This document shows, piece by piece, positions 7,519 through 56,935 of a stretch of 64,000 bases of DNA (position 1 is its first letter; every line of letters starts with the position of its first letter). The notes beneath the pieces were generated by a model, which was given only the letters and a program-made list of their open reading frames with translations, was not told the origin of the DNA and did not search any database. Source of the stretch: Asparagopsis taxiformis (Eukaryota > Rhodophyta > Florideophyceae > Bonnemaisoniales > Bonnemaisoniaceae); assembly GCA_030407315.1 (NCBI GenBank), contig JALQPE010002660.1, forward strand, positions 19,922-83,921, in the 5' to 3' direction. The position numbers were made by a program, and so were the translations under genes.

Positions 7519-8369
7519 TATGCCGATTTCCATTCTACCTAGATATCGTTTCAGTCAGACCTATCCGTCCTGCAGTTTCTCCGCAAAAGTGCGATGTGCC
7601 GCCCGTTCTACCTTTCAGTTTCTACCCAGAGCGCCCACCGGTGCAACCACTCTACCCAGTGGACATGGTCCACGCCCACTCGACGGTACAACCACTCTAC
7701 CCAGTGGACATGGTCCACGCCCACCCGACGGTACAACTACTCTACCCAGTGGACATGGTCCACGCCCACCCGACGGTACAACCACTACATCCAGTGGAAG
7801 TGAACCGTACCCATTACAGTGCTCCACGGTGGAATAATACCAGTGTCACGAGCAGGTGTTATAATAGAATATATCCGGGCTTTACACAGTACTGTAGTTT
7901 GGAAACTAACCGCGCTTTGCCTTGGGCCGTACATGCCCAGTCAATGGTCCCTTTCCAGATTATCGTTTGGCCAGTTCCACAAGTCAGCTTGGTCACGTCC
8001 CATAAGCAAAAAGTCACCTACTCTGGAATTATTCCAATGAATACAATAATCATACTTTGGTCACCGTCCATTCAGCGAGTGCTGCTTACGCCTGGTTTCA
8101 GACACCGGACCGTCACGGTGTGCCCATTATATTTTATAGTTTATTTCTACGAATCGCTCTGCACCTTCCACCACATATCGCAGTCACGGTGCACCCCATA
8201 TCCAACTATACCCATATACAGTACTAGTTCCATTCCAACAGTCCGTGCCTGCGTGACTTGGCCCGTTCTAGTCAACCCGCCGTCCTGCTCATATATGGAC
8301 GTGGTTCATTTCCATCCCTACGTGTCCTTCCGTACATGGTTCAGCCATCACCTCACGGCCACACCATAG
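7519..8369 (+). CDS. Doubtful repeat-containing reading frame
   Basis: An open frame of about 280 codons carries three to four 15-residue repeats of the type YPVDMVHAH (coded by 7641-7800). The repeat length is a multiple of three, so all three plus frames stay open there, which weakens the case for coding. There is no clear ATG at the 5' end, and no domain, signal peptide or membrane segment stands out. A non-coding tandem repeat is about as likely. Confidence 0.2.
7641..7800 (+). repeat. 45-bp tandem repeat, about 3.5 units
   Basis: TCTACCCAGTGGACATGGTC recurs at 7651, 7696 and 7741, with a decayed fourth unit near 7786. The period is exactly 45 bp. Confidence 0.9.
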
Positions 8370-8556
8370 TTCTGCTTGGTTCCTGCCTACTGTAAAACAA
8401 AATCGCCGTGCTGGTCTCAGCCCATGATTTTTTACATTTTTTTCGATGGGCCTTATCCAAACGTTGGGGATGGGCGTTCCGCTAAAATATGGTGACTAAT
8501 TCTACTGTACGATACGGCATTTTCCATGGAATATTCTCTATTTTTGCTTATCCTGT

Positions 8557-8653
8557 GTGCCGTAAGGCACAATCGACCCGCCGAAATCAAGGTTTTTTAC
8601 AATATTTTTGCTGCCCGAAATTCTACAATTTCTGGGCTGGCCAGCAATGCAAT
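8557..8653 (+). mobile_element. Fragment of the methyltransferase-element TIR
   Basis: It begins with GTGCCGTAAGGCAC and runs through AATTTCTGGGCTGGCCAGC, matching the inner half of the inverted repeats at 9511-9742 and 13486-13687. The outer half is missing. Confidence 0.75.
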
Positions 8654-8960
8654 AGCTATCTGCTCTAAACCGATTCAAACAAGCAGAAAGAATCCTCTCC
8701 TTCATGACGATGCTCTCGAATTGAGTGCAATGCAACGGTCTCCCTCCAAGAGAACGACAAAGCATCGTCTTTTCCAAGGCATTTCCGTACGAAAAATAAT
8801 CGTAAAACATATTTGACTTTAACCTAACAGCTATCGCGAGCACCGTACTCAGCTATATTTCCTCTGTAATTTCCTTCCTCCAACCAATCAATAGCCGCTT
8901 GGTCACAGGCTTAAAAGCCTTCCACTATCTGTCCTATCCATCGAAGACCCTCGGAGGGTC

Positions 8961-9255
8961 CATCAACGGAGGTGGAGGAGGCTATGGTGGAAGCCTGGAG
9001 AACATGTGAGATGTCAGTACCCATGGATCACAAGAACATGTTGAGGTGCGGTTCGGATATTCTTTCCATTAACGGAGGTGGAGGAGGCTATGGTAGAAGC
9101 CTGGAGAACATGTGAGATGTCAGTACCCATGGATCACAAGAACATGTTCAGGTCCGGTTCGGATACTGTTGCCATTAACGGAGGTGGAGGAGGCTATGGT
9201 GGAAGCCTGGAGAAGAATAGAGTAGTCCTATACCCATGGATCACAAGAAGACGTT
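8961..9255 (+). repeat. 105-bp tandem repeat, about 2.8 units
   Basis: Units start at 8961, 9067 and 9172 with AACGGAGGTGGAGGAGGCTA. The second unit is almost identical to the first; the third diverges after about 85 bp. No continuous coding frame crosses the units. Confidence 0.9.
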
Positions 9256-9510
9256 GTTGGGCTCCTTTTCGAAGCCCATTCGTCTCTTGAATAAATTTAG
9301 CACCCAAATCATATACGATTGCCGAGTTGACACCCCGTATGTCTCGTTGGTAGAAATAGCAGGGGTTCCACCACTCAGCTGGCGGGAAGTAGTTACTGAT
9401 TATATGAGATATGGCTTAGCTCCCGCCAAAACCGATAGCTCTGGGCTCAGGTTCTCCAAATGTGGTTATACGAATGTGTTCTGACAATGCTAGAAGACGA
9501 ATATCTGCAT

Positions 9511-9742
9511 CCTGATTTGAATTAAAATTTGGGCTATTCTCAAAAACATGCACATGTGAACATGTTTTTGAGATGGGGATGTGCCGTACGGCACAATCGA
9601 CCGCCCAAATCGATGTTTTTTTGCAATATTTTTTCTGCCCGAAATTGTATACAATTATACAAAATGAAATTCTATAGAATTTCTGGTCTGGCCAGCAATG
9701 CATCTGAGCTGGACATCCCCATGTCCAGTGGCCGTCCGGATG
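9511..9742 (+). repeat. Left terminal inverted repeat
   Basis: Reverse-complement partner of 13486-13687. Similarity is high from 9511 to about 9705, apart from a small AT-rich insertion near 9650-9670, then fades. Confidence 0.85.
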
Positions 9743-10068
9743 TCGCTCACCTGGTAAGCGTGATGCACCTGTGACAACCTATGTGACTGCAGTCACAGCC
9801 GCCATGGCGGCCGTGCAGTACAACCCTCAAAGACAGGGAATCACAATCTTTTTAAAATTTTTCTCTACCACGTATCTGTCACAACTTATTACCTACACCG
9901 GTTACGGGTTTCAAGACCTTTCCAGTGCTGTGTACCCGTATACTCTGTTCCGTTCGATATCAACCAGTGTTCCTCACGAAAGAGTGCAAACGTCACGAGA
10001 TACGTCGTCAAATTTGACTGTCTCGCCGAGCGGTCGCCATCCTGTACCGAATTTCCACTCATTCCATT

Positions 10069-13000
10069 ATGACGAATAAGCGCAGACGCAACAGCAATCC
10101 GATCGTTGACGACGCAACCGTGCCAATTCTGCGCGAACCCGCTAGCCCTTGGGAGGATTCTAGTGACATGGGTACACGTCGAAACGTAGGTCGCGCCGCC
10201 CGCGAAACTACTCTCGCTGGCAAAGACTTCCTCCGCCTCTTGCTGGATTTGTTCGCCCACTCAAGTTTCGCAGACTTGACGGACAAGCCGGGAGGTTTCA
10301 CATACGCGGACCTTGGCGCTTGGGTTGCGCAGGGCACAGAAGAACAATTTCTGGCGCTGCAAGGTCGACTCAGCATGGCCTTCAGCGGTCGTTCGAAGAA
10401 TGCTGGAGTCGAGGCGGATGTTGCCGAAATCGTCATGGCAGAGATGAACGTTGAGCGAGCCAAGCAGATTGTTCGTCTGGCATTACCGATTGCCGAGTTT
10501 TCAAGACAGGATGAGCGTATCGGGCAATGGGTTGAGCACTGCATCCTTTCTGGGATCGTGCCGCAGACCTTCCTTATTGGATGTAACATGCTTCCTTCGC
10601 CACTACAGGCGCGCGCAGCGCGGGGAACCAAGCGCCTTCGTTCTTGCTCCACCGGAAACGTTCGAGGTATTGATGTATTTCCAAGCGTTGTCTATCATCC
10701 GAAATCACAACAAGAACCTGCCGCGTCGCCGAATAGGCGACGCGGCCGAAGAGGGGAACGAAGCCGCACGCGTCCCAGCCCATCGGAAAAGCACTAATCG
10801 AGCTTGTTACGTGGTTCAAGTTTTATACCATGCTTGGACCGATGTGGCCTTCGCCGCAAAGTTTTCCAGCTTCGAAGAGTTGATGGCGCCGTACATCATT
10901 TTCGACAGCAGTGAGCATTGGTTTGACGTGCTCGATGAAGGTCTATTCGCACCGATGGAGCAGAAGCTAGATCTCTACCACGACAAAGCTCCCCTATCTC
11001 ATCCTGATGGATATGGTGGAAAAGTAGAGACAAGAACCAGTGCGCAGCACAGTGCATTTAGGGACCTTGTGAGGAAGTTCTTCGACCGGTTGCAGTTTCT
11101 TATCGTCAACCCGGACCTGTACACCTGGCCGGAGTCCGACCGCTGGGGGGCGCTGGAAATATACTTGTCAAGCGGAAATCCGGACAAGCTGCCAGCGTAC
11201 TTTGACACCCTCGACGAAGACGTTATGGCTGTCCTCCGCCCGGCACCACAAGCCGCGGACGCAGAAAAGGTCCCCAAGCCGGTTGATGACACTCCCACTC
11301 GTCGCAACACAGGAGGGAGAGGTTTGGTTCCGTCGACAAGACACACAACCAGGCTTCAACTTGGACCTGGGAGGACCAGTCTTACTGCCCAAGGGCCGTC
11401 TCCCCCGTCACCGTCACCCCATGCGACAGAAGAGCAGGAAAGTGAAGGGCAGGCTCTCGCAAAGGACTTTCTTTCGAAAATGAGTCAGTATTGCCGGGTG
11501 TACGACGTCCCTTTCGAAGATTTGGTCAGTGCCGACGAGAGCCGAGAACACGTGCCCATCACGGGCAACGTTCAGCTCATTCTGACTGATCCGCCCTACA
11601 ATGTTCGTCGTAAGAGGAACGATTCCAACTCTTCGTACGACAGGCTAACTGCAGAAGATATGCAGGCTAGCATCGAAGTGTTTGACGAGCTGTTGCGCCC
11701 CGGTGGCCACGGCATCGTGTTCTGCTCCGTTTTGCAGTTCTACGAATGGTTCCATTACTTGGAAACGTACAAAGGACCGCAGTCAGAAGGCCCAACCGAT
11801 GCTGCTGCCAGTGATGACGGGTCGGATGAAGAAGAGGTTACGTCCATGAATTCGGACTCCGAAGCATCGCAGCACAGTGGCGAAGAAAGTGCGGATGAGG
11901 AGGAGGACGAGGAGGACGTCGTTCGGAATTCAGTTTTCTTCGTTGACGAGGTACCTCTGTTGTTTGTCCGACTACCTGGGCACCTCTATCAAATGCCGGG
12001 GCGGAAGAGGTACCAACGCATGAACATGGCAGAGGTCGCTATCCACTTCTGGAAGCGAGGTGTTCCGTTCAAGACTGGAAGCGAGATGGTGGCCTATAGG
12101 AACCACGGATACATGGACGGCACGTACCCGGCGTGGTGCAACGTCACCATCAATATGCCCGCCATCGATTCGAATGAGATGGTGTGGCGAACAAGGAGCA
12201 CAACCGGTGCTACGGTCAGAGTTCGTGCAGAGCAGAAGAGCGTCGCTCTCATGATGGAGTTGATCAGCCAGCATTCACAGCCTGGTGATATTGTTGTCGA
12301 TCCATTCTCTGGCACTTTCGCAACGGGAAAAGCAGCTATGAGCTTGCCTGAGCACCGTGTTTTCGTCGGCAGTGACATGGACAAATTGTGTGTGGCACGA
12401 TCGCTTCCAAAGCTGTGTGCAGTCATGTCACGTGTAATTCTTTCAAACAACACTGACATGAGGGTCACGACAGAAGCGAAACAGAGTGCTGAGAAGTTCT
12501 TGGCGTCCCCCTCTGTCACGATGCGTACGCAGAGGGAACGCAGGATCATCGAACCCCCACCTGGCCTTCCCCTGTACCAGAGGTTCCCGAAATATATTCG
12601 GCAGTACCTCTGGCAGCTGTGCCCAGAGTCGATTGCGTCGCACGAGCACATGGAAAAACCGGTACATTATTGGCCACCTTCCCTGCGCCGCTGGTTGCAA
12701 ACTGAAAACCCTCGCGTGATGCGGGCACACGATTGTGTTGCGAAAAAATTGAGCGTTCGACCATCGCTGATTAAGCATCCAAATGCAGGAAGAGGGCTCT
12801 TCGCTGAACAGACATTTAATGTTGGCGACGAAGTATGTGCATACTACGGAACTGTTGTGTACTCTGATATGAGCAAGGAGTCGATGAGGTTCGCGTACGG
12901 AGAGGGTCACATGGCGATAACGAAGGAAACATTCTTGATGTATGCCATCAAGCTGTATGCAACAGCGGAGGACGACGAAAACATCGAGCATCCAATTTGG

Positions 13001-13261
13001 ATTGTTCCGGCTCCGTTCTGTTCGGCGCAGTTCATCAACGACCCGCGGTATTTGCGAGGTGAGGACACTCCGGCGGAAGACACCAGGCGGATGGCCAACG
13101 TCGAGTTTGTCGAGAACTACAGCAGCGGTTCGACGGGGAAGAAGCTCAAGGCGAAGGACCTAGAAAATCCGAAGATCATTGTAGTACGTGCAATCCGCGA
13201 TATCCGTCCGGGGCAGGAGCTCTACGTTCATTATGGGACAGCGTTTAGAGCATGGAATTAG
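10069..13261 (+). CDS. Beta-class DNA amino-methyltransferase fused to a SET domain
   Basis: The catalytic part is one 936-codon frame (10451-13261). The upstream frame from the ATG at 10069 (MTNKRRR, basic) joins it by an apparent +1 shift near 10570-10610, so the start is uncertain. In the 936-codon frame, residue 380 begins DPPYN (motif IV). A target-recognition region with an acidic insert of about 65 residues follows, then DPFSGT at residue 617 (motif I, SAM binding). The IV-before-I order defines the beta class (CcrM/HinfI type), which makes N6-methyladenine or N4-methylcytosine. A C-terminal SET domain runs from GRGLFA (780) through FINDP and NVEF to ELYVHYG (923); SET proteins usually methylate lysines. 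The canonical NHS is changed to ND-P, so SET activity is uncertain. AATAAA at 13292 may be the poly(A) signal. The gene lies between TIRs, and a decayed paralogue is at 51913-54806. Confidence 0.85.
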
Positions 13262-13485
13262 GGAACGAAAGATGTTTTCATTTCGACTACAAATAAAGCT
13301 ACGTTCCAGAGTTGAAGTATATCATATAATGCAGCATGTCCAGCCACCATTAGTCCAGGGTGAAACCTATTGAGCAGTACTCGCCTGTCAAAAACAATCG
13401 TTCACACTCTAGGTGCACTTCGTCCGAGCAGTGAACCTGACTGCTTGGATGCTGTTATGCGTGCAGATGCAAAATACACGACCAA

Positions 13486-13687
13486 GTTGAAATGGACGCC
13501 CGGTGGATGTCCAGCTCAGTTGCATTGCTGTCCAGCCCAGAAATTCTACAATTCAGGGCAGAAAAAAATATTGCAAAAAACATCGATTTCAGCGGGTCGA
13601 TTGTGCCGTACGGCACACCCCCATCTCAAAAACATGTTCACATGTGCATGTTTTTGAGAATAGCCCAAATTTTAATTCAAATCAGGA
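13486..13687 (-). repeat. Right terminal inverted repeat
   Basis: Partner of 9511-9742. On the minus strand it reads CCTGATTTGAATTAAAATTT from 13687 inwards. Its inner edge, a GGACATCC...GGCGTCC stretch, also matches copies at 57.4 and 58.4 kb. Confidence 0.85.
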
Positions 13688-13919
13688 CGTCTTCCGGACA
13701 TAGGGGTGCTCGCGGCCTAGCTCGACAGCTGTAATTGTACCTCATTAAATACTGTTGATGACTGCCTACCGTATACAATCTGGGCTGTTGGCGTATTATC
13801 CGGTACTTGACCTGACCTGAACGTTCATCGCAGACCGTTGTGGTTACCGACACTATACAGCAATCTTTTTTGTATCTCGTGCAACTCAATCGTTCCATCG
13901 CTTCCGGGAAAGCTTCATT

Positions 13920-16203
13920 ATGCCGCCGCGTATTGCGAAGAAAGCTCCAAAGCCTCCGGGCCTCCAGAAAACCGGTCAGCAGCTGCTGTATCGAGTGCCC
14001 GACAATCCCGTGCGAAGAAGCGGTCTGGGCCTACCGGCAGCATTGAACCGCGGTCCGGTAGTCGCAAGACGGACCGGCGCAGAACTGGGGATCCGCAGCG
14101 AGAAAGTGAGGAAGGAGGAACGGCGCGGAGAGAGATGGGGCTTGACCGAGGCAAGCGTGCTCGCAGGGACAGTGAACATCATGATGATGACATGATAGTG
14201 GCTCAAAACATGTTGGAATTGCGGCAGAGTGCTATGGCAAAGGTAGTTCCTCCCGGGTTGGCAGATGCGGAGGTGCTGCAGACGGAGTCCCAGCCGGGGG
14301 TTCCCGAGACACTGGAGGCTGTGACCCCCACTGCGCCAACTATGCCGAGTACATCAGCCCCAGCAGGTAATGCAGTCAGGGACCCGAGGATAGCGGCAAG
14401 GGATGTTGTTTCTGAGCAACGTTCACAGGATGCCAACTATCATCGGCGGTCAGGTGGTACTGAGGGGAGAGAGCAGCCGGAGTGCGGGCCTCGTCACAAC
14501 AGACTGTCATTGGTGCCAAATATGCGCGTAACGCCCCCGCGACGTCAGGCTATTGCCGATGGAGGACATCATAATCCCGATAGCGTGCGAGATGGGGGGA
14601 CGGTGAGGGCAGAGAGGTTGCATCCGCCGGAATCCATCGATTTAATGGCGAGTCGCATCAATGCGCAGAAGAAGAAGATCGCGGAGCTGGAAAAAAAGTG
14701 TTTAGCCAGGACATAGCAAACAAGGCGCTCACCACGGAGATAGTTGCGTTGGAGGCTAAGGTGAAGACTCTGCAGGCGGAAAATGCCAGCCTTACTGCAA
14801 TTGCGAGAACAGGTAGAATCAGTGATCACGGTGGCGGTAAGTCGAAAATACAGAAAGCCATTCCTGTGAAATACCTTGGAGTTCTTAGGGCGGTTGAGGA
14901 AAACCTGACAAAGTGGTGCAAGAACGAGACTATGGAGCTGGACCCTATAGCGGAACAAACGCAGAGACGTTGGACTGGACGTACCATCGAGGTAGAGCCG
15001 GTAGAAGGGACACTTTGGAGCGAAAACGGTGTAGGATATATTGCTACCCCTCCGGGCTATATCATCAAGAATCTGCAGTGGTATACACCTTCGTACAGAG
15101 ACGAGAGTGATCTGCTGAATGACTTGGTGCGACACGTACTGCGTCAAAGTCCGTGGTGTGATGTGTTTTCCGATGAGGAGCAGCGTGTGTGCTGTCAAGA
15201 GGCTGTGGCGGGGAGCAAGGAATTGAAAGTGAAGGTGACGCAGAAACTGTCCGACGTGATGAGTGCACGGAAGCGTAATGCGAGGGACAGATTGTTCGGT
15301 TCGCTGGGGTACACGAAATTAATGTCTAGATGCACGATGCTGACGACGCGAGCTGAGATGGACGAGCGAGAGGATCAAAAGCGCGAAGCGTCTGAGAAGC
15401 TTTTGAAACGGGAAAGCAACGGTGATTTGGATATGGGGAGGTGGCGAACGGCACCGTTCTCAGAGCTGCGATACAGCAAAGGCATGGTTCCTGACAGCTT
15501 CGAAATGGAAGTGAATGGTGATGCATGGTTTAACAACCGAGTAGCTGTGAATGTGCTGGACATCTTCAGGGGTTATTCGATACGACCAGAACAAGTAATG
15601 GACATAGAGACGAGCATACTAACGCTGGCGCGCCTGGATGCTTGGCTAGTGACTACTGTGGAGTGTTTGGATGAACCGAAGGGGAAAGGAGGTGCACGGC
15701 AGAAGGAGTTTACAAGGCGGTACAGTCAATATGTGGGGGTAGCTTTTCAGCAATTAGTTGGTATGGTGGTGTACTGCATGTCTTGTCTCCAAGGCTCGCA
15801 AGCAAGGGAAGAAACGGACGTTGTCGAGAGCGAACAGCGGACTAGTGCACAGTCACGGCATGTGTTTGCAAGCCGTACTGTGACGAGAGAGGCTGTTGAA
15901 GTGTGGCAAAGCGGAGAGGGGTCTGGAATTGTTCATGTCGTTGATGATGTAAACCGCTGCTCATCACTTGTTCTAGTGTCCGAGGATTGGATTCAATCGC
16001 ATATTACGTCAAACCTCGGTGCTGTAATGGATTGTGTGATTGCGCAAGGACTAATTGGCGCAGAACTTTTCGTCGTTGACCCATATGCTGGACACCTGAG
16101 TGCAAACCTGAATGTCGAAATCAATGCCCCACAGTATGGGGGCATGGAGCGGCGCCATGCAGCCACTGCTGATAACGGTTTTGGCGTAATGGAGGATGGT
16201 TGA
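13920..16203 (+). CDS. Unrecognised coiled-coil protein in two frames (possible -1 frameshifting)
   Basis: The first frame (about 13920-14716) is disordered, rich in R, S, P and G, and ends in a heptad helix with IAELEKK. The second (14698-16203) continues the same coiled coil (IVALEAKVKTLQAEN) and then a globular region of about 400 residues that I do not recognise. The frames overlap at A AAA AAG (14692-14698), and a -1 step there keeps the coiled coil unbroken. The ATG at 13920 gives a basic start (MPPRIAKK) but needs a further shift soon after, so the 5' end is unclear. The gene starts about 230 bp outside the TIR at 13687 and converges on a Plavaka-type transposase ending at 16281, so it may be an accessory protein of that element. 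No enzyme motif is seen. Confidence 0.55.
14692..14698 (+). other. Slippery heptamer A AAA AAG at a frame junction
   Basis: The zero-frame codons are GAA AAA AAG TGT. The heptamer is correctly phased (X XXY YYZ) for tandem -1 slippage, after which GTG TTT AGC follows in the downstream frame. The zero frame would stop after five more codons, at 14716. I do not see an obvious stimulatory hairpin just downstream. Confidence 0.5.
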
Positions 16204-16280
16204 AATTAGTGCAGTAAATGTGACGTTGACTAGAAGGCTTATCATGTAGTACATTATCAATAGAGTGCTGCGATTTAGAT

Positions 16281-19200
16281 TTATTCTTCTTCATTATCAT
16301 CTGTGAACTGGTAATCAGTGTTGGTGTAGAAGCGGTTGAGATAGAAACGGTGGTCCGACCAGTGCATTTGTTTCGTAAATGGCTTGACTGGAAAGTTACT
16401 TCGTACGATGTGCACGGTGCCAGATATAGTAGATGCAGGAATGAGGTCAAACCAAGGACCACCTGCACTGTGGGATGCAGTGTCATTGCTGTCAACGGAT
16501 CCGTTGTCCGGGTCCCATGTGGACCACTTTAAACAAATGCACCCAAGTGATTTTTCCACAGCGGTTTTTGGGGCAAAGCAGGTCATATACTGAACGAAAG
16601 CGAGTTCTACAGGTTGAAACAGGTTTGGAGACTGCAGGCGTACCAGTGCCAGGACGCGCCCTACCCATATGGTTCTGTAGTCATCGGCAGTTCCGGAGAT
16701 GACGACAAAGGAGTACTGCGATCTCTTTGCGGGGCCGAATGATGAAGTTGCAAAGACGCGCTGCTGCTTGTGCCTCGACACGTTTGTGGGGCGAAGCATG
16801 CCACTGTGCGGGTCAAAGTCGTCGGCATCTGGGACGTACCCTCCCATGACGTAGGCGGACTTTACCACGGTGACGGAAATGTCCATGTCATGTATTGGAG
16901 GGCCTTCTGCCGTGGCGCGCAGTCTAGCGAGGGTGAGGAACGCTTGTGCAGCTGTGTCACCGAGTTGCTGGAATAGCGTTATGGTGCCAGACGGGAACGA
17001 GGAGTTGTGCAGAGGCAAAAGAGTGGCAGGATCGGGCTGTCCGTCGATATCTGCAACGAGGAGGGTTGCATCGGGCAGCAGGGAGGCAAAGTCGTGCAGT
17101 GCAACGGTGAATCCGTCGCGAACGAGTACTGCACCGTCTGTGGGCGATATCATGCGTGGTTTCCCAATGTGTTCGATGGGGTGTGACCAGTTGGAGTGGC
17201 CAAGGAGAATTCCATGTGGCGAATAGTCTCTTCCATGGCTGTGGAGCGCCTTCGAGAGGTTTTCCTATAACTCTGTTTGAACAGAAGATGCGAGTGTTCG
17301 TAGGGGCCTGCATCAATGTGTTCCAGGGCGCCATATCTCTGCAAGTCACCGGGAAGATGGTCAGAAGATGGAACTTGAAAGTTTTGAGACCTGTGGTGTG
17401 GAATGGGCCGAGGGTGGAGAGCATTGATTGTTTGAAATAGGAAATGGAGTTCTGGAGGCTTTCGAGTTCGGCGGCAGTCCAGTGCTTGATGCGACCGCGT
17501 TTCATGACCCATGCGACGAGGTCAGAGTATTGCGTGCAGATGGAAGTGAGGGGGGCTGTCTCTACTTCGTCACAGCATGTGTCAATGAATGCTGCGATGA
17601 AAGGGAACACCATGTCGACATGGTGATAGTCTTTGGCTGCGAGCATGCCGCGTATGCCGTCCTCCGTGAAGAGGCCGTTCAAATTGGTGCCCTTCTCACC
17701 CTTGGAGAAGTCGACATGAAGACCGGTGATGTAGTAGTCGCGTTCGATAGCGGACAGAATGCTGTTTGAGCCGGCGAGGATGGATTTTTTCACCTTCTTG
17801 AAGGTGCGAGGTGTCCCGGAATGGGAGGCAGTGGTGGTGGTGAGGTCTGGGGAGCTGAGGCGGTGGACAATGCACTGTTTGATGAGCTTTGAGATGCCGA
17901 GGTGGAGATTGTGCAGAGGCTCGAAGGAGAAAATGTTGTAGGGGTCTAGGGGACTGTTGGTGGGTAAAAGAGCGGTCGATTCGAGGACAGAGTGTTGTTC
18001 GAGGAGGGAGAGAGCTTCGAGCGGAGCAGTTGTATGCTCCTGAGCGCTCTCTTGGCGTGCAGAGCGTGTATCATCGAGGGAGCGGGGCTGGTGTGGCGCG
18101 GTGGATTCAAGTTGAGTGGCGGGGATGTAGCAGCGGTGGCAGGGATGTGTGGTGGTAGTGCTGTTGCGAGTGCATGACAGCTCTTTGGCCTCTGGAAAGT
18201 CGCAGCAATAATTGGCTAGGATGGGAAAGCATTGGCGGGCAGTTGCAGTGGAGTCTGTGCAGGGGAACCCGGAAGAGAACGCGGTGGATAGGGACGAAAA
18301 CACTTTTTCGAGTGCTTTATGAAGAATATCAATTTTGCGAGCGCGACTAGCAGAACTAGAGGTTGTCGGCATTTCATCACCGAACAAGGCGTTGGACGAA
18401 GGGTTAACAATGTACGGAAGATACCCGACGATGGTGAGGCCGGTACGGATGCAGTGGCGACGGAGGGGGGCGGAGAAGTTGAGCAGTGTGACGTGTATGG
18501 GGTATGCGACGATTGCGGAGCTCTTGAGGCTTGTGCTGCTCTTGTCGGAGTACACTTGGAGGAGGCCGGCAAAGGAGGAAGGGTGGGATCATTTTCCTCT
18601 GCCCATACGACCTGTGGATCTTCCGAGAGCTGCACGCGCTGTCTAGTAACCTGGTGCAGCGTTTTCGCGAATTCTGTGTGTAGGGGATGAGAAAATATTG
18701 CGGTGCCGTCTGGGGCGGTCTGTGGGGAGGGGCGGAAGAGATTATTTTGGTCGTTAGCCAGTGCTAACTGCCTGCGGAGCATGTCGACTGGGTCGCGGAG
18801 GTACAGCTGTGCCGAGTACTTACCAGTTTTGTCTGGAATGATGTGGCTCTTGTAACCTTCGGTGTGGAAATGTGTTTCGACCATGGAAGCGGTAACGTGG
18901 CGACATTCTTCTACGGTGCGAACGGCGCTGTTGAACTTTTCTAGGGAGAATGCGGGGTCTTGTAGGATGGTGATGACTTCGCTCACGCGGCCAGCCCCGG
19001 CCTTGTACTCGAGGGTTGTGAGACTGGCGGCGAGGGATTGCACGAGGAGGTCTGCGCGGGAGGGGGTTGAGGTTGGTGGCAGTGGAGCGTCACAGGGTGA
19101 GTCGCTGGAGGAAGCACGACCAGATTCTGGGTCTGGGGAGCTGGGTTGCGGGGAATCCTGGTCGCCGTTTCGAGCAGGCTCATGGGTGACGGCAGGGACA

Positions 19201-19319
19201 CGAGCGTTGTTGAAATGTTGGGGAGAGGGGTTGAAACGGTAGCGACACGTTCGCTCATGCAGCGCGAGCGCATAAGCATCTACGCAGTAGTAGAAGCACC
19301 CTTCATACTTGCATTCCAT
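16281..19319 (-). pseudogene. Plavaka/tnp2-type transposase broken by three -1 shifts
   Basis: Reading from 19319 down, the protein opens with a C2H2-like finger (CKYEGC...H..TC) and a disordered linker. Next come a SDKSSTSL...PIHVTL segment and GYLP, typical of the Plavaka N-terminal domain, then CCDFPEAKEL with CHRC, and FEPLHNLHLGISK. An acidic block follows (DAGPYEHSHLLFKQSYR), then a C-terminal region ending at TAA 16281. These segments lie in four successive frames, with junctions near 18560, 17350 and 17235. Each junction is consistent with loss of one base. The family performs cut-and-paste DNA transposition with an RNase-H-like DDE core. With three breaks the copy is probably dead. 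It faces the coiled-coil gene ending at 16203. Confidence 0.75.
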
Positions 19320-20751
19320 GTCGAGTTTTGACGCAAAAGGGAGGATTGCGAGCTGAACAGGGGAGACTGTGCCGTCCAGATGCGACCAATTTTATTTTTG
19401 TGGTGCTTTCGAGACTTGGAATGTAACGTGTTCGTTCGTAGTTTTGTGGGTAGTAGTTTTGTGCTCACTCCAGCTGACATCCCAACGGTGGAATTTAACC
19501 AAGAGTTCAATCATTTCCAACTGTTACATCACATTGCGTGCTGGCAACGTGTGCATGGAAGGACGAACGACTGCCTGGGACATGAATTTTCAATTAATTC
19601 ATTTGCAATAATAAACTTTTTTATTTCCGAACTTCGTGGAATCTGAATGTGCTTTACAGCGGATATGCCACGGATCATGTAAGGAAAGCAAATGGATTCT
19701 CACATATATGATTATATGTTTATATTCGTTGTTCTCGATCCGGATCTCATTGTTCGGGGATTCAGAGACCATGGCTTGGGCCATACTCAATCTCACTGCC
19801 GGCGATGATTTCGAGTATGCACAGCAAGACTTAAGCGGACGCTGAAAGCTGTCCGGTCGATGCCGCAGGCTCCACTCCGCCCTCATCACCGACTGAGATT
19901 CTTTGACCTCCTTTGCTTTGTACGTGTGCGAATCTTGATCAAGATTCGCGCACGTACCTTCGTTCCATCCTCTACCCTCGAGGGTATGCATTGAGGTAAG
20001 CGTGGGTTTTGAGTTTGACTATTTCCGTTGATGCGATATTTTTCATTGGAAGCCTATTGAGTCATGGTGTGTATTGTGTGGAGCGAAGGTAAGTGTGCGA
20101 GTTTTGAAAGTAAGCAGCGAGGGAAGGTTGGTTTCGGGTCTGATTGTTGTGGTGGATTCCGATATTGTGTAGGTGATGCAGGAATGGTGATGACGGAAGG
20201 TAAGTTTCATTGAGCGCCAGGATGTGGTTTGCGAAGATATGGAATGCTGACTTTGATTATTCATTGCAAGGTTTTTGGATCATGGTTTGTATTGTGTGTA
20301 GGATGGATGAGAGGTAAGTAAGGGAGTTTCCTAGGATATCTGTCGTGGTAAGCGTTGGTTTTGAATCTGACTGTTGGGGTTGATGTTGTGTATGTGATGC
20401 AGGAGTGGTGAAGCAGGAACGGCAGGACTCAAGGAGAGTGAAGAAGGGATCTAGGAAGATGGGGAATGAAGCTGTGAGGTGTTTCTGGTATGTGTATATT
20501 TTGGGCATACGATAGAAGTGAGAGTGGGTTTCAAGTGGTGTAAGATTTTGCTGACCATGTTCGTGTTTGATGTCTTGATGATTTAATGGGCTGGGGTGGT
20601 GTCGAGGAAAGCGGGATGGAATTGGGAAGGAGCGGATTTTTTGTAATCAAGGTCGTGAGGGTTCTTGAAGTATGTGCGGATGGTGGTGCATGGCGTTCGG
20701 ATGGTAGGGAGAACGCGATAGTGAGGGAGATGGGTGATCGACGATATGCTG
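19320..20751. other. Non-coding stretch
   Basis: No gene is supported. It contains the palindrome at 19921-19956. From 20040 to 20420 there are loose direct repeats around GATGTTGTGTATGTGATGCAGGA and GGTAAGTAAGGG, suggesting a decayed tandem repeat. Confidence 0.5.
19921..19956. repeat. Palindrome with 18-bp arms
   Basis: TACGTGTGCGAATCTTGA is followed directly by its complement with one mismatch. A short TACCCTCGAGGGTA palindrome follows at 19973-19986. Confidence 0.8.
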
Positions 20752-20845
20752 ACAGGTATTTTGTATTCTGGCTGGATACGTATTTCGTATTCTGGCTGGA
20801 TACATATTCCGTATTCTGACTGGATACGTATTTCCTATTCTAGAG
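20752..20845 (+). repeat. 24-bp tandem repeat, about 4 units
   Basis: GTATTCTGGCTGGATACGTA starts at 20763, 20787 and 20811 with small changes, plus partial units at the ends. Confidence 0.85.
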
Positions 20846-20966
20846 AGACGTATTGTATACCAGCAGTTTCGTAAATGAGAGAATAAAATACGGTCCGATA
20901 TGGGCCCTGAATTTACCATCCGCTGTAATTTATTCCCTCCCGGTTTTCGCTGATATATTGTATACT

Positions 20967-21095
20967 GGATGTCGGGTCCTAGTATTCCGCCAAACGTACT
21001 AGAGAAAGTGGATGTCGGGCCCTAGTATTCCGCCAAACGTACTAGAGAAAGTGGATGTCGGGCCCTAGTATTCCGCCATATGTACTAGAGAAAGT
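20967..21095 (+). repeat. 43-bp tandem repeat, 3 units
   Basis: GGATGTCGGGCCCTAGTATT starts at 20967, 21010 and 21053. Units end with GTACTAGAGAAAGT. The following 120 bp hold further TGGACGTCCGC and CTAGTA words, shared with 54830-55060. Confidence 0.9.
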
Positions 21096-21118
21096 GGACG
21101 TCCGCATCCAAAAAATTT

Positions 21119-22513
21119 TTATTTTTTGTGGACGCGGACGTTCATTTGTTCTAGTAAATCTCGGGGCCGACTGGGACCCGTACTAGAGAGACTGGACGTC
21201 CGCGTCCACTTCCGAAAACACAGACGTTCGATGCGCTGAAGCAACGGCGGAGTCGTGTTAACTGGAGAAGCGCGCCGGGCGCGGACATTTCGACCATCGT
21301 CGCGCTCAGCGGGAGAACGATCCCGACGACGACCGGATATCCCTCCTCGAGGTTGAATACTAGCTGGAGTCTCCAGGGCGTGTGTCGTATCCCTACTCCG
21401 CTCATGCGGTATGCGCCTACGCTCTGAGCGCAATTCTTCCTCAAGCTCTCGGACTCTTGTCACTAGTTCATCGAACGTCTTCTGCCTCGCAGTTAAGTCC
21501 TTTTCCAATTTTGACACCTTCTCTTCCGCTAAGCGGCGACCTGTACGCTCTACGCGATAGCGCGTTACTGCAGCATCCCGTCGCTCGCGACTCTCCTTGT
21601 ACCGGGTACCCAACGTGACACACGCTAACGCCAAAGTATCCAATTGGATTACCGTTAACGCATTGCGAACAGGGTAACCGTCATCCCGTGGATGAAACAC
21701 CGACGAAAGCTGGCCATCACCAAGACTCTCCGCCAATTGGCACACATTCGTAACCGATAATAACTGCGCCGCAGACAAACTGGATCCAAGAACATCCACG
21801 CGAGCGGTAGCACGACCGACCGTACCGTCATCCTCGAGTGACTGACCGGATTGACGGTCTGGTGACAGAAACGGCGCTGCCGTAGAAGCCGGAAGACCCG
21901 TACGGGTTGAGCGAGAAAGATCCAGTGGGGCTGGTGGAGGGACAACTGCCGGGGGTTCCATCGCTTCGTAAGAAGCTGGCTCTACAGGAGCAGTTGGATG
22001 AGGGGAGACGCCGGAATCGGCTGGACGATAATGACCAGCAGGTTTCGAACGCCCAGGGCGTGGAACGTGCATCTTCCGTTCGGGTTTGTACATGTAGTCC
22101 TCCAAATCTCCGTCGGAGTAACTTGGCGGGACGACCGTAAGATAGCCGTCCTCGGCAAATTCACCGTCCCGACGAAACGGAGTCTCAACCACAGTCCCGT
22201 CCCGGGTAGTATACGCCGCGGCCTTCGCCGGTTTGAAGGGTAAACTCGGATGCGAGTAAAGGAAGATCTTCTCGGGCGCAACGCCTTCGATTGTACAAGC
22301 AATCTCCTCTACACCATCGGTGGTCTTGTAAGAAGCCTCGAGGAGGTCGATGATAACCTTCACATCTACGCTACGCGTCTTCGGTACAACCAGTGATAAC
22401 GGCATCTCATGGAATGTCTTCCACGTCGTGATAGCCGACTCTGCCAAGTGCTTGGCCAATACCGGGAGGAACCCTCTAGTTTCTACGAGACGAGCCAATT
22501 CCAAACCAATCAT
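21119..22513 (-). CDS. Unrecognised protein with a disordered middle and coiled-coil end
   Basis: This is a 464-codon frame. Residues 1-140 look globular (LETRGF, FHEMPL, VIIDLLEASY). Residues 140-230 are proline-rich, and about 300-370 form a charged heptad helix (EEKVSKLEKDLTARQ). The end is arginine-rich with RRRDRSP. The last 30 or so codons lie in the GGACGTCC/CTAGTA repeat, so the natural C-terminus may be lost. Upstream, the same frame continues across a single TAG (22523-22525) for at least 55 sensible codons, including MLYFHSVVEADPRPW, so the original protein began further up. It could be a gag-like or accessory protein of an element, but no motif proves this. Confidence 0.45.
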   Translation of the reverse strand: MIGLELARLVETRGFLPVLAKHLAESAITTWKTFHEMPLSLVVPKTRSVDVKVIIDLLEASYKTTDGVEEIACTIEGVAPEKIFLYSHPSLPFKPAKAAAYTTRDGTVVETPFRRDGEFAEDGYLTVVPPSYSDGDLEDYMYKPERKMHVPRPGRSKPAGHYRPADSGVSPHPTAPVEPASYEAMEPPAVVPPPAPLDLSRSTRTGLPASTAAPFLSPDRQSGQSLEDDGTVGRATARVDVLGSSLSAAQLLSVTNVCQLAESLGDGQLSSVFHPRDDGYPVRNALTVIQLDTLALACVTLGTRYKESRERRDAAVTRYRVERTGRRLAEEKVSKLEKDLTARQKTFDELVTRVRELEEELRSERRRIPHERSRDTTHALETPASIQPRGGISGRRRDRSPAERDDGRNVRARRASPVNTTPPLLQRIERLCFRKWTRTSSLSSTGPSRPRDLLEQMNVRVHKK

Positions 22514-41120: not shown

Positions 41121-41240
41121 TTTTTAGGGAAGAATAAAATGAATAACCAGATGCATCACATATGAATTGTACACTCTAGGGCGGTGGTGGATTGGTGCAA
41201 AGTAGTGGGGAGAGGATCTGAGAGGATGGAGGGAGGTATG

Positions 41241-41684
41241 CTTACAGCAAAGTCATCGTTACGATGACTTTGCTGTAAGAAAACGTTTCCATTACAGTGG
41301 CCAAGAATGTTTTACCGGGTAAAAAAATCGTGGCAGCTGTAATGATTTGCTTTCTTACAGCAAAGTCATCGTAACGATGACTTTGCTGTAAGGAACCGTT
41401 TCCTTGCAGTGGCCGAAGAATTTTTTACCGGGTAAAAAATCAGCAAGAAATTTTACCGGGTAAAAAATTGTGGCCGCTGTAATGATTTGCTTTCTTACAG
41501 CAAAGTCATCGTAACGATGACTTTGCTGTAAGGAACCGTTTCCTTGCAGTGGCCAAAGAATTTTTTACCGGGTAAAAAATCAGCAAGAAATTTTACCGGG
41601 TAAAAAAATTGTGGCTGCTGTAATGATTTGCTGTAAGAAAACGTTTCATTACAGCGGCCACAATTTTTTTACCCGGTAAAGAAA
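41241..41684. mobile_element. Palindrome-array MITE, copy i
   Basis: Three copies of a 39-bp palindrome, CTTACAGCAAAGTCATCG and its complement around TTA/TAA (41241, 41354, 41494), alternate with TTTTTACCGGGTAAAAA palindromes and TGTAATGATTTGC spacers. Related arrays lie at 45808, 46583 and 51218. Confidence 0.8.
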
Positions 41685-51912: not shown

Positions 51913-54806
51913 TCAGTTAGCTGGCCAATATTTTCTACCATAGTCAGCAAATATCTCCTCATCAGCTTCAACGTCTCTGGTCAGAACGACCTTGACAGCA
52001 TGGGGATTCTTGATATTTGAAGCAAAGTCCGGTTTGTCTATGGCATCGCCTTGTCGAAACTCGGCTGACTGTGTTCGACTCACCTCGGTCGCTTTCTCCG
52101 TTCCGTCAATGACCCGACAATCATTGAGGTAGCTGGTACAATTATAGACCGCTGGAACGAGCCAGACCTTCCGAACAGGTGCACCCCTCCCTATGTACGT
52201 GGTTTCCAATTCCATGTTGTAGTCCTGGAACCTCTCTCCTGTGCACCCAAATCCTTCCGGGCCGTACATCACTGATCTCTGCGGTTCCGAGTCTCGAATC
52301 TTCGCATAGAAAATCGTCCCGTTGTACCAGCCAATGACCGTCCCCTTCTTCAGTTTCTTCGCCGCGAATACGCCAAACCCACCACCTCTTACCTCCGATT
52401 GCGAAACATAGACACCGTAGAATGCGGCATCAGCAGCCAGAATCGCGTCCGGGTCTATGCTCCAAACGAGTGCATGTCCTCGGCCGGCCACTGGTCCATA
52501 GGCACCCCGCTCAATCTGTGAAGCATAGACCCGTCCTTCTTCATTGACGCAACGAACACAAGCAGATGGTTCGGCAATGCTGTCACAGCAGGTAAACTTC
52601 TGGTGCACCTGAGATGTGCTTCTGCCGAAGCCTTGGAGCTTTTCCTGTGACCGGTACCGACTCGTCCCCAAGAATACTCTCCACCTCACGCTGCAAGATC
52701 CCCCATATCGCCCGGCTTTCACCTCACTGACGAAAGCATGCAGTATCCACTCCTGCGATGCATCGTGGCACCTTTTTTCCTTCTCACACCCAATGAACCG
52801 ACGATACGTACCATCCCTCAACGTCATACACGCTATGGCTGTGCTGTATGTTCCCGAGAAGAAATCCATCACGATATCGTTCTGCTTCGAAAATCGTTCC
52901 AGAAGCTCACGAAGAGTGGTCAACGCCTTCTGCTCATGGCGCAGTCGGTTGTTCTGCCCATCGTATTGAGCTTCACCAGCCGACAACCTCGGAACGTTGT
53001 CAATCGCGTTAGTGAACCCAGGGTGCCTCGATATGTCCGGATTGTGCAACCTGTAATCCACCATATCGTATGCAGCCATACCCTTCCCCGCTTATACGCA
53101 TGGATAACGAAATCGTGCATATTATACAGTGTGCACGTTTTCGTCGATGGATTGGACGTAAAGCTGTGTGGTCGGCGAGATAGCACGACTGGAACACTGT
53201 CCACAATCATCTTGCCAGGCTCGGCATTTCTGATTGCATCCATCTATGCCACGAGTTGGCGCACGCTGGAATAGATTAGAGCATGACCGCCAGGCCGAAG
53301 AACTCGAACTATTTCACACGCAACACTCGCCAACTCTTCCGGCTCCAGAATATCGTACTCCGAGTTTTCTCTGCCGCCTTCCCGCCTCGTGTTGAATGGA
53401 GGATCAGTGAGCACAAGCTGAACACTGTCCTCCAACACGCCATCTTCCAGGAAACTAATTTTGTCCTCCACCTCTTTGGCTACATCAGTGGCGTCACAAT
53501 TCACAGTGTGAATGTAACGCCCCATCACAGCTTCCAGCTTGGTGACATATTCCGGCTTGGATTCCTTTCCGACGTCAACGAGCGGTGCTTCTGTAGGCGA
53601 TACAGTGTCAACCTCCATAGCGTCATCCTCGGCCGCACCTTCTCTTGTTGCTGTTTCGCTAGCAACCGCCGCATTATCGTCCTCTCCACCACCGCGCTCC
53701 AGCCTAGCCTTCTTCCTCTGTGGCTCCAGACTATCCTCTTCTATATCCTCGCTGCCATTGTTTGGCACTGCTGCGGATATTTCCATCTGCGCAGGTGCAC
53801 CTTCAAGGATGCCAGGCTCGGGCGTATCCTCAAGACTGTGCAACTCATCCATGGTCGGAGGAAGCTTTCGTTGCTCTCGGGTTCGCAATAACCAAGCCTT
53901 CAGCCTCCTCTGACCATCCAGGGCATGAGACGTGTTCAACTTGGTTCGCATGAACGAGTTCAAGCCGAACTTGTCAGGAGTTTCGAAAAGCAAGGCTCGA
54001 AGTCTCTGCATCAGCTGACCACGCTCGGCGAACACATTCACCTCAGTGACACATTGGCGTATCGACAGCAGGAAGGCGCTTGTCAATGATCGCAGCCTTG
54101 TATCCACAGCCACTGGAAGGTCGGCACAGAACCCGTTTTCACTGTCTACAGTTTTCGGGACAATGGTCAGGTTTTTCCGATGCTCCTCGACCGCGCAGCC
54201 ATCAGACCGATTCGGGAGTGACCTGAAGCAAAGGCTCGCAGGATCGAATAACATGAACGGCCAGCACATCGATTCAACATCCTCATACCCCAACACTCTT
54301 GCTCCGGTATCCCACGCAGCTAACACACGGTCGACAACAAATCCAAGCTGGTTGGCTTGCGCACTGGATGTTGCAATTCCAACCATTCCACCACCACCAA
54401 TGGCCCCGGATGTGGCTCTGGCCCGCCTAGATGGCACACTGCCCATCTCCTTACTGCGAATAGCCAAGATACACTGGCACATCATAACCATCAGCCTCCT
54501 GAACCGCTTCTGGCTAGCCTGCAAAGAATCTTGCATGTCGGATGTAGCGCCGTCCAGAAAGTACCTGCTCGAAAGCAGTTCGCGGTTCAGTGGAGAGGAC
54601 AATTCTCCGCGGGGTGTCTTGCCAAACATTTCGACGGCACGAGAACTAGTCACCCCCACCTGTTTCGGAAACTCAACCATCCTCGGAGAATCACCCACCT
54701 CTGCATTGAGTCCCCATGCATGACAAAACATTTGCCACAGACGCAAATCAATCGAACTCGAATCTTCTGCTCGGTGATATGGCCGAAGCACAGCCAGGAT
54801 AGACAT
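51913..54806 (-). pseudogene. Second DNA methyltransferase-SET gene, decayed
   Basis: The ATG at 54806 opens a frame whose middle (VVDRVLAAWD, FMLFDP) resembles the N-terminal region of the 10-13 kb gene. A KKARLERGGG basic stretch and acidic linker lead to VQLVLTDPPFN (motif IV, about 53395) and LRPGGHALIYSS. A TAG at 53244 interrupts the frame; the same frame goes on (VDSVPVVLSRRP). A -1 shift near 53080 then leads into the frame 53079-51913 with MDFFSGTYSTAIA (motif I) and a C-terminal SET domain (GGGFGVFA, SYLNDC, ADEEIFADYG). Domain order and length match the first copy, but sequence identity is low, so this is an old paralogue. No TIR of the 9511 type is recognisable next to it. The one stop and one shift make it non-functional as read. 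Confidence 0.75.
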
Positions 54807-54829
54807 GCATGAGCTGTCGTCTGTGTTCT

Positions 54830-55060
54830 CGGAAATGGACGCGGACGTCCACTACCTCTAGTACACCTAGTATTACTAGGCGGACGTCCATGTTCTCCAG
54901 TATTTTTGGATGTCCGCCTAGAACCGGACGTCCATGCGGTCTAGTACGTCTAGTATTACTAGGGCGACATCCATTGTTTCTAGTACCACGGATGTCCCCC
55001 TCGGGATGGACTTCCGCCATGTCTATGTCCACCTAGGACGGGCGCCGGTTCAGAAATTCA
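54830..55060. repeat. GGACGTCC/CTAGTA satellite
   Basis: Irregular units of about 45-60 bp combine CGGACGTCCA with TCTAGTAC...TAGTATTACTAGG. The same words make up the repeat at 20967-21215. Confidence 0.75.
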
Positions 55061-56435
55061 AAAATTTCGACCCCAGAAATTTCTGCCGCCGTGCTCGACA
55101 TGGATGTCCGCATCCATCACGGCGACCACTCTATTTTCCTTGTCGGTCGACTCCAATTTCGTCTTTAATTTTTTCATCCTCTCGCTCACACCCCCTTCCT
55201 GTTGGTGCTCACCTCCCCCGTACTGTACCTCAAACACCCCCAATACCACTCTAGCGCGCATTTTCAGCTACCTATCCCCGCTTCCACGTTGCACACCTCC
55301 ATTCCATACCTACTTTTCTGCCCTACCGTACAGATTTCGTATAACCAGTCGTCATACTACCTCAGAATAGGGAAAAACACCCCCTATCTCCTCGACCATG
55401 CTCTCCCCCATCACCTTTGCAACGTATTGTTCTTCAATACCCTCTCTCCTCTACCTTCAACCCCTCTCCTTCGCCCTCTCCACAAACTTCCCCTGCAGCT
55501 TACTCTTCGAAAACCTCTCACTCCCCATCCCGTACCCGACCTACTCCACCCCTCCCTCCCTCAGCTGCTCCATGCCCCCACGACATCCGCATCTTCGATA
55601 CCGTATACACCACCACCACCGGCCGACGCTCCCGCTCCCCCGCCATCTCCCCAGAAACCTCCCCGCTCTGAACCACATATCAACCCCCCACTTCGCACCC
55701 ATCCTCCCACTCCCCTCCCTCCCCAAATACAATAACCCTCTTCTTCACCATCACATCCCCACTCACCACAGCCAGAACAGACGCCACCCCTCCCCCTCTT
55801 TCTCCTCACTTTCCTAAAACCCCCTCCTCTCGGCGACTTCAACCGCACCCTCCTACGGTCCCACCTAAACACCTCCTTCGCCCTCACTACCCCAACACCC
55901 CGCAGCGTCTCCCCAATCCCCATAATATGCTCGTCGGCACTCCTCTCCGAATCACACTCCAATCTAAACCCGCACTCCGTACATTTCCACCTCCCCCTGT
56001 ACCATCCCAAGATTCCATCCCCCCACAGAACACATCCTCATACCACAGAAGAATTTTCTTCCTCTCATACCTCATCCTTAAAACCTCCATCAGCTCCATG
56101 TAAATTTCGATGTAAATATTTTCTCCACTATGCAATCTCAAACATGTATGAGCCTATGCCTTTCCGCTTTGTCACCCTTGAATATTGGTACTCATGTATT
56201 CATAAAATAGGGCCACCCACATCCCTATCCCGTTCTGCAAGCTTTACAAACCACCAGACGCATACTCCACAACTATACAACAAACACTACTCGCTATTTC
56301 AGACAATGCGGTACACAAGTAGCGTAGTCTCAACCTTCCGTGCAGCCTTCCCTGATGCGTACAAGTGCGAAACACGTCTAGACTACTACTACTACTACGA
56401 TATAGTGTATCAGAAGTGACTGCGGGAATTTTCGG
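55061..56435. other. Pyrimidine-rich non-coding stretch
   Basis: From 55190 to 56040 the plus strand is strongly C/T-rich, which leaves many long but low-complexity open frames on both strands. One minus-strand stretch near 55930-56000 (KCTECGFRL, DEHIMGIGETLRG) looks less random, but the frame breaks on both sides. I do not call a gene. Confidence 0.4.
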
Positions 56436-56726
56436 CACAGGAGATGGTGGGCCACCAAATTGATTTTTCGGAAATTTTAGAATTTCTGGGCTGGCCAGCA
56501 ATGCAATCGAGCTGGACATCCAGCAGACGTCCAGTAGTGTTCGTCGTGAGAGAGTGGGGCGGGACCATGATGAAACAAGGACCAAGACGTGTCCCTGACG
56601 TATTCAGCCTGGAATCGACCCTTCGTAAGACGCGATTTTGGCTTACAGTTGGTGCTTACAGAAGCCAGTGGTGACCCCGCTCGGAGCGGCGGCCGGTTTC
56701 TGGGACCGTTGTGGCCAAATTAGATA

Positions 56727-56935
56727 CCTTGATTTCAATTAAAATTTGGGCTATTCTCAAAAACATGCACATGTGAACATGTTTTTGAGATGGGGGTGTG
56801 CCGTACGGCACTTTCGACCGCCAAAATCGATGATTTTTCACAATTTTTTTCTTCCCGAAATTTTAGAATTTCTGGGCTCGCCAGCAATGCAATTGAGCCG
56901 GACATCCACCAGACGTCTATTTGGGTTGTTCGTGT
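56727..56935 (+). mobile_element. TIR-family copy a
   Basis: It starts CCTTGATTTCAATTAAAATT and holds the ACATGCACATGTGAACATG palindrome and GTGCCGTACGGCAC. Confidence 0.85.

What the first reader, a model, noticed from the sequence alone, without database searches (positions are those of the whole stretch)
9511..13687. DNA methyltransferase fused to a SET domain, carried between inverted repeats
The sequence shows a DPPY...DPFSGT (beta-class) methyltransferase and a SET domain in one open frame, enclosed by inverted repeats of about 200 bp whose sequence also occurs in many other copies. Family knowledge says the first enzyme methylates adenine N6 or cytosine N4 in DNA and SET proteins methylate lysines. 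A mobile element that encodes both in one chain would be able to write marks on DNA and chromatin together. I know of no described transposon with this gene. No transposase is recognised inside.
Basis: partly seen in the sequence, partly recalled or inferred. Interest (0 to 1): 0.88.

Follow-up and report, generated by a model that had tools for sequence, protein, structure and literature searches.

The report
Seaweed transposon carrying a double methyltransferase
A large jumping gene in what looks like a red seaweed genome carries, next to its own transposase, one gene for a protein that appears able to methylate both DNA and (probably histone) proteins, so the element may write chromatin marks for itself.

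Summary
The fused gene is real: window 10448-13258 encodes a beta-class DNA methyltransferase (N6_N4_Mtase, E 1.9e-15) and a SET domain (E 8.7e-7) in one frame. The 99%-matching inverted arms at 9510 and 13687 are also real, but they are copies of an internal repeat ("R"), not the ends of the mobile element: in 19 of 20 fetched copies homology runs on to the right. The carrier is a Plavaka DNA transposon, with its transposase at 16284-19391 (-) (PF18759, E 4e-23), a sharp right end at 21226, 47-bp terminal repeats and 15.6 kb in one full copy, and 2-bp target duplications in 5 of 8 end pairs. The window copy is left-truncated and frameshifted; intact copies exist. Over 13 intact copies both catalytic domains show purifying selection (pN/pS 0.09 and 0.03). 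Unnamed relatives sit in public collections. The genome fits Asparagopsis taxiformis, whose N6_N4_Mtase expansion was reported without a cause in the passages seen. Most likely role (inferred): anti-silencing, by writing marks on the element itself. New variant of a known kind.

The parts
8558..21226 (+). Remnant of the Plavaka element in this window (12.67 kb; left end missing, cut off at about 8557 by another repeat)
   Evidence: 97.2% match to full copy C12 over 9000-20411, plus 98.3% over 8555-8959 and 89.8% over 19984-21226; 34 of 40 scored copies of the left neighbour repeat end at 8556-8558, the other 6 (window included) run to the query's end at 8560; right end
10069..13261 (+). DNA methyltransferase-SET gene, frameshifted in this copy (frame from ATG 10069 to 10797; frame 10448-13258)
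   Evidence: one frame in 13 of 20 fetched copies
11570..12385 (+). N6_N4_Mtase (PF01555) domain, motif order DPPY then DPFSGT (beta class)
12788..13237 (+). SET domain (PF00856)
   Evidence: residues 780-929; Foldseek SUV420H1, SET7/9, MLL1
9510..9718 (+).
13505..13747 (-).
8555..8652 (+). Further, truncated R copy at the broken left side
13811..16203 (+). Third gene of the element (no Pfam family over cut-off; weak sub-threshold coiled-coil hits); broken into several frames here, longer single frames in some other copies
16284..19391 (-). Plavaka transposase gene, broken into three frames here; one frame of 1036 aa in the full copy
   Evidence: PF18759 E 4e-23 in 16960-18588; 1.2e-22 over 169-501 of the 1036-aa frame of L069
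20756..21102 (+). Right subterminal tandem repeats (24-bp and 43-bp units)
21180..21226 (-). Right terminal repeat of the element (terminus ...CACAGACG)
   Evidence: 16 of 16 fetched copies diverge right after it; 47-bp terminal repeats 87% alike in the full copy
54818..56891 (+). Left end of another, incomplete copy of the same element; R copies follow at 56473-59324
   Evidence: 94.9% to the left end of the C12 copy; terminal motif; R copies
51916..54851 (-). Second, distant methyltransferase-SET gene (24-25% identical in two pieces), broken; relative of another family with 104 further scored copies

Best explanation
The finding is the cargo gene of a large Plavaka-family cut-and-paste DNA transposon (15.6 kb in the one full copy read) that has multiplied in a genome matching the red seaweed Asparagopsis taxiformis. 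From left to right the element has a terminal repeat, palindromic R repeats, the methyltransferase-SET gene between inverted R copies, a third gene of unknown function, the Plavaka transposase on the opposite strand, right subterminal tandem repeats and a terminal repeat. The protein joins a bacterial-type beta-class DNA methyltransferase (adenine-N6 most likely, from DPPY and the nearest folds) to a SET lysine methyltransferase. Shown: the anatomy, the association in many copies, recent amplification, and purifying selection on both domains. Inferred: the enzyme acts on element DNA and nearby histones and so keeps copies expressed or transposable in spite of host silencing (about 45% likely as the main role). 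Self-silencing (about 20%) and priming of the ends for the transposase (about 20%) are the main alternatives. The confidence given below is for the anatomy and for carriage by Plavaka, not for the role.
Against: No activity, expression or methylation data were available, so the role is inference. The outermost bases (CGTC..GACG) are not the TGT..ACA or CATCA..TGATG reported for fungal Plavaka (PMC12730594). In 3 of 8 end pairs no 2-bp duplication is seen, the 15.6-kb copy among them. 11 of the 48 SET-Plavaka pairs fit neither geometry (2 odd, 9 more than 17 kb apart). In 3 of 20 copies (L033, L037, L041) the left neighbour changes right at the left arm, which I explain only by recombination between R copies. 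In 9 of 27 aligned homologues no SET was detected at E <= 0.1.
Confidence: 0.85

Rival explanations
1. The 4.18-kb unit between the R arms is itself a mobile unit, nested in or hitch-hiking on Plavaka elements.
For: 99% complementary arms; whole unit present in 19 of 20 fetched copies; in 3 of 20 the left context changes at the arm; 9 pairs have the unit inverted relative to the transposase (detail of L039).
Against: No target duplication at the arms (by eye); right neighbour constant in 19 of 20; the arms are two of several R copies and the right one runs on past 13687; inversion needs only recombination between R copies; a search with the flanks joined found no empty site among 40 scored places (weak: no scored place matched the left half).
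Confidence: 0.08
2. The enzyme is a self-limiting or self-silencing device: it methylates the element to damp its own activity and so protect the host.
For: Copy number is high and writers of DNA methylation can silence (general knowledge); selection keeps both domains.
Against: The nearest precedents (fungal transposon TET/JBP enzymes) are interpreted as anti-silencing (PMC12730594); fetched copies are 97.7-99.0% identical to the window unit, so amplification was recent.
Confidence: 0.2
3. Base methylation at the palindromes or ends controls transposase binding or excision timing, as dam sites do for some bacterial elements (recalled); the SET part acts on transposase or other proteins.
For: Palindromic R repeats and subterminal arrays next to the gene.
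Against: No methylation or binding data; no recognition site known.
Confidence: 0.2
4. A host gene family (the reported N6_N4_Mtase expansion) into or beside which transposons inserted by chance.
For: PMC12115072 lists 66 such genes among duplicated genes.
Against: Fixed distance and strand to Plavaka in 28 pairs plus 9 inverted; whole flanks repeat between copies.
Confidence: 0.02

Closest known systems
TET/JBP-bearing Plavaka and KDZ transposons of fungi (Kojima 2025, PMC12730594; abstract, passages and section 4.2 seen)
   Same: Plavaka-type element that carries a second gene for an enzyme acting on DNA base modification; coding regions mostly kept intact; 2-3 bp target duplications.
   Different: The cargo there is a dioxygenase that oxidises methylcytosine; here it is a writer, fused to SET. 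Different host group and other terminal bases.
HarbingerS and MuDR transposons of Phytophthora with SET genes (Kojima and Jurka 2014, as cited in PMC12730594; the reports themselves not seen)
   Same: DNA transposon carrying a SET lysine methyltransferase.
   Different: Other transposon superfamilies; no DNA methyltransferase in the same chain is mentioned in the passage seen.
Retrotransposons with cytosine methyltransferases (de Mendoza 2018; seen only as a reference in PMC11244446, content recalled)
   Same: Selfish element encoding a DNA methyltransferase.
   Different: Retroelements and C5-cytosine enzymes; no SET fusion recalled.
Bdelloid rotifer N4CMT (PMC8885841, start of abstract seen; structures 8s9m-8s9o)
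CcrM / M1.HpyAVI / M.BceJIV beta-class N6-adenine methyltransferases
   Same: Motif order and fold.
   Different: Bacterial; recalled as stand-alone enzymes without a SET domain.

Membership tests
Plavaka DNA transposons | Plavaka transposase domain (PF18759) | tested here: met
   82.6 bits in the window, 81.1 in the full copy, cut-off 26.3
Plavaka DNA transposons | Terminal inverted repeats around transposase and cargo | tested here: met
   47-bp ends, 87% alike, in the 15,630-bp copy C12
Plavaka DNA transposons | 2 or 3 bp target-site duplication | tested here: met
   2 bp in 5 of 8 end pairs, P 4.5e-5; none of 3 bp in the 7 pairs for which that was printed
PlavakaA / PlavakaB as described in fungi | Termini TGT..ACA or CATCA..TGATG | tested here: not met
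   Termini read CGTCTGTG..CACAGACG; TGTG begins four bases in. Not filed in either group
Plavaka / CMCT clade | C(2)C and H(3-4)H motifs in the transposase | tested here: inconclusive
   CHRC present; a nearby histidine pair reads HNLH, spacing 2; judged by eye, no alignment made
Beta-class amino DNA methyltransferases | Motif IV (D/S)PPY before motif I with FxGT | tested here: met
Beta-class amino DNA methyltransferases | Methylation of adenine N6 or cytosine N4 in DNA | not testable with these tools
   needs an assay
SET lysine methyltransferases | SET domain with GxG, YxG, N(H/D) and C-terminal tyrosine | tested here: met
   PF00856 29.8 bits; residues present in this protein (ND in place of NH) and in many of the relatives, degenerate in several; SET found in 18 of 27 at E <= 0.1
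SET lysine methyltransferases | Lysine methylation of histones | not testable with these tools
   needs an assay

The most novel reading that the evidence does not exclude
A bifunctional selfish chromatin writer: one transposon-encoded polypeptide places a DNA base mark (6mA or 4mC) and a histone-lysine mark on the same element copies, and this kind of gene has been taken up by more than one transposon lineage. In this genome a second SET-fused family has 104 scored copies besides the window's, and a third methyltransferase family sits a fixed 3.69 kb from a DUF7869 gene on 7 of the 8 contigs that hold both (by eye; SET not tested there).
Probability: 0.35. Interest if true: 0.87.

Novelty: new variant of a known kind. 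Interest (0 to 1): 0.72.

Why it matters
Transposons that carry erasers (TET/JBP) or a SET gene are on record, but the listings of nine searches of the held open-access library, of whose papers I opened three in part, showed none with a DNA methyltransferase fused to a SET domain. Subscription papers are not held; surveys of eukaryotic adenine methylases by Iyer and Aravind (recalled, not seen) could bear on it. If it works as proposed, one enzyme couples two layers of chromatin marking, and a multicellular red seaweed offers a direct test of whether transposons write their own epigenetic state. It also offers a plain cause for the N6_N4_Mtase gene expansion reported for Asparagopsis taxiformis.

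Tried and rejected
Rejected: (1) the arms as transposon ends. (2) A viral source: the scan of IMG/VR with alignment A1 gave 10 loci; eight match about 45-61 residues around motif I and two about 109-119, none reaching SET (the tool warns that near records may be left out). (3) Plavaka as carrier of the second family (ORF 1186): distances to Plavaka hits on shared contigs looked inconsistent, read by eye, not scripted. (4) DUF7869 as carrier of that second family: likewise inconsistent by eye.

VIA-align rows cover only residues 444-825 of the model, so the SET match rests on Foldseek and Pfam. The joined-flank search for an empty site was uninformative on the left half.

Caveats on counts: searches of the own genome score only the best candidates (150 of 1661, 123 of 1208, 105 of 3353), so copy numbers are lower bounds. 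The homology search scored only the 7985 candidates sharing most words. I took 140 of the 150 SET rows as this family and dropped the first 10 (stronger, presumably other SET genes) by score alone; 20 of the 140 were fetched, picked by hand and not at random. Lists for searches were typed from the outputs. Two right-end copies (L057, L058) share one flank, so the 16 copies stand for 15 insertions. The 13 copies used for pN/pS are those of the 20 with an intact frame.
Full report
OBSERVATION. The frame 10448-13258 (+) encodes N6_N4_Mtase (E 1.9e-15) and SET (E 8.7e-7) domains. The arms 9510-9602 and 13595-13687 are 99% complementary over 93 nt. Both parts of the observation stand. The gene itself begins at an ATG at 10069 and is frameshifted here near 10.6 kb: the frame 10069-10797 and the frame 10448-13258 overlap. 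Of 20 fetched sister copies, 13 carry it as one uninterrupted frame of 1062-1079 codons from that ATG.

THE ARMS ARE NOT THE ENDS. I fetched 20 loci around SET hits of the same genome (picked by hand from the 140 rows that I assign to this family). Nineteen hold the whole 9510-13687 unit, to within 3 bases, at 97.7-99.0% identity to the window copy, and one holds part of it. Homology does not stop at the arms. To the right it continues in 19 of 20, for 16 of them to the end of the fetched DNA. The exception is L039, in which the unit is inverted. To the left it continues in 16 of 20; in L033, L037 and L041 it changes at 9508-9513, and in L046 the unit is truncated. The arm sequence is a repeat R that also occurs at 8555-8652 and at 56.5-59.3 kb of the window and four times in one full element, counting a partial copy.

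THE REAL ELEMENT. A Plavaka transposase domain (PF18759, E 4e-23) lies at 16960-18588 on the minus strand. In a complete copy the transposase is one frame of 1036 aa. Homology between copies ends sharply at window 21226: 16 of 16 right-end copies share the sequence to ...CACAGACG and then diverge (15 distinct flanks, since L057 and L058 share one). The terminal 27-mer, with up to 2 mismatches, occurs 1362 times forward and 1397 times reverse in the 141.5-Mb genome, against 0 for the reversed pattern (only the first 100 places are listed). Two forms of it, one per end, face each other in the pairs examined (by eye). Copy C12 runs 15,630 bp between 47-bp terminal repeats that are 87% alike. Flanks of eight end pairs show a 2-bp target duplication in five (AA, TG, TT, AT, TA), P 4.5e-5 by chance; C11, C88 and the 15.6-kb C12 copy do not. 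One flank of C11 matches the methyltransferase gene itself, by eye, so that pair is probably not one insertion. The window copy lacks its left end: a different high-copy repeat reaches to about 8557 (34 of 40 scored copies end at 8556-8558, the other 6 run to the query's end at 8560). Its transposase is broken too, so this looks like a dead copy of an abundant family.

ASSOCIATION. Of 140 SET hits taken as this family and 123 Plavaka hits, 43 contigs carry both, giving 48 pairs. Twenty-eight have the transposase 4.64-4.84 kb downstream on the opposite strand. Nine have it at an upstream offset on the same strand (eight at 10.477-10.483 kb, one at 10.11 kb). Two are odd (C41, C476) and nine lie more than 17 kb apart. 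In L039 (contig C436) the unit from about 8555 to 13692 is inverted relative to the flank that leads to the transposase, and the anchor positions, set by eye, agree for C110, C119, C135, C138 and C213. Recombination between R copies explains this; a regulated switch is possible but not shown.

SELECTION AND AGE. Thirteen intact copies differ on average at 1.2% of synonymous and 0.25% of nonsynonymous sites: pN/pS 0.21 overall, 0.32 in the N-terminal 500 residues, 0.09 in the methyltransferase, 0.24 in the linker and 0.03 in SET. Of 59 distinct single-base variants 38 are synonymous; among transitions 29 of 40 against 34% expected (P 8e-7), among transversions 9 of 19 against 18% (P 0.003). Pairwise values are not independent, the numbers per domain are small, and the copies were chosen for an open frame, which bears on stops and frameshifts rather than on the ratio. 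Both domains thus appear to have been kept while the element spread. Open frames of at least 1065 aa occur at 65 of 140 SET hits and of at least 1030 aa at 80 of 123 Plavaka hits.

ORGANISM AND PRIOR WORK. That paper N6_N4_Mtase genes potentially the most striking feature of its duplicated genes, against 4-6 in three other red algae, and in the passages I saw gives no cause. Kojima 2025 (PMC12730594; abstract, passages and section 4.2 read) describes fungal transposons, Plavaka among them, that carry TET/JBP dioxygenases, and mentions SET genes in HarbingerS and MuDR elements of Phytophthora. The Amoebidium paper (PMC11244446, passages) reports Plavaka-flanked giant repeats with tyrosine recombinase genes. 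The listings show no paper on a transposon with this fusion; I opened three of the listed papers, in part.

MECHANISM. Best supported: a cargo enzyme that acts on the element's own chromatin. The DNA part would mark element copies (perhaps at the palindromic R repeats) and the SET part would mark neighbouring histones, which would hold copies in an expressible state. Every step after translation is inferred. Self-silencing and methylation-gated transposition remain open.

OTHER FAMILIES. The window holds a second methyltransferase-SET gene (51916-54851, minus; 24% and 25% identical in its two pieces), broken and with the left end of another Plavaka copy at 54818. It is an 82-86% relative of 104 further scored copies, many with a 1186-aa frame. 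A third methyltransferase family (frames up to 1106 aa) lies 3.69 kb from a DUF7869 gene on the opposite strand on 7 contigs (C609, C974, C2255, C2616, C2011, C2012, C2038); on an eighth that holds both (C1696) the only DUF7869 hit is about 30 kb away, and four more rows of that family have no DUF7869 hit on their contig in the capped list (read by eye). Whether that family has SET was not tested.

Noticed in passing
window 51916-54851 (-): Second, broken methyltransferase-SET gene, an 82-86% relative of 104 other scored copies in the genome, many with a 1186-aa frame; its carrier element was not identified.
   Followed up: partly
window 54818-59324: Left end and R copies of another Plavaka copy at the edge of the second methyltransferase-SET gene.
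   Followed up: partly
window 41236-41630, 45881-46089, 46578-46904, 51174-51638: Another palindromic repeat set (core CTTACAGCAAAGTCATCGTAACGATGACTTTGCTGTAAG) in inverted copies next to the second methyltransferase-SET gene, parallel to the R repeats.
   Followed up: no
window 35530-38039 (+): DUF7869 gene in two frames (E 4.5e-41), a family with 150 scored matches of 502 candidates in this genome; 7 contigs pair a DUF7869 gene with a third methyltransferase family at a fixed 3.69 kb.
   Followed up: partly
window 7800-8557: End of another high-copy repeat (40 scored matches of 239 candidates, 99-100% identical; 34 of 40 end at 8556-8558, 6 run to the query's end) that truncates the Plavaka copy within an R repeat.
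   Followed up: no
L039 and contigs C110, C135, C138, C213, C358, C436, C480, C495, C503: The methyltransferase-SET cassette lies inverted relative to the transposase in 9 pairs, with breakpoints in R repeats in the one copy read (L039 is part of C436); possibly invertible.
   Followed up: partly
contigs C12 (264414-275483), C14, C20, C90: End pairs 10.0-11.5 kb apart with matching 2-bp duplications, too short for the full element; possibly elements without the methyltransferase cassette.
   Followed up: no
window 26701-27177 (-): Fragment of a helicase-type ATPase (AAA_11, E 3.3e-6, 27.5 bits against a cut-off of 27).
   Followed up: no
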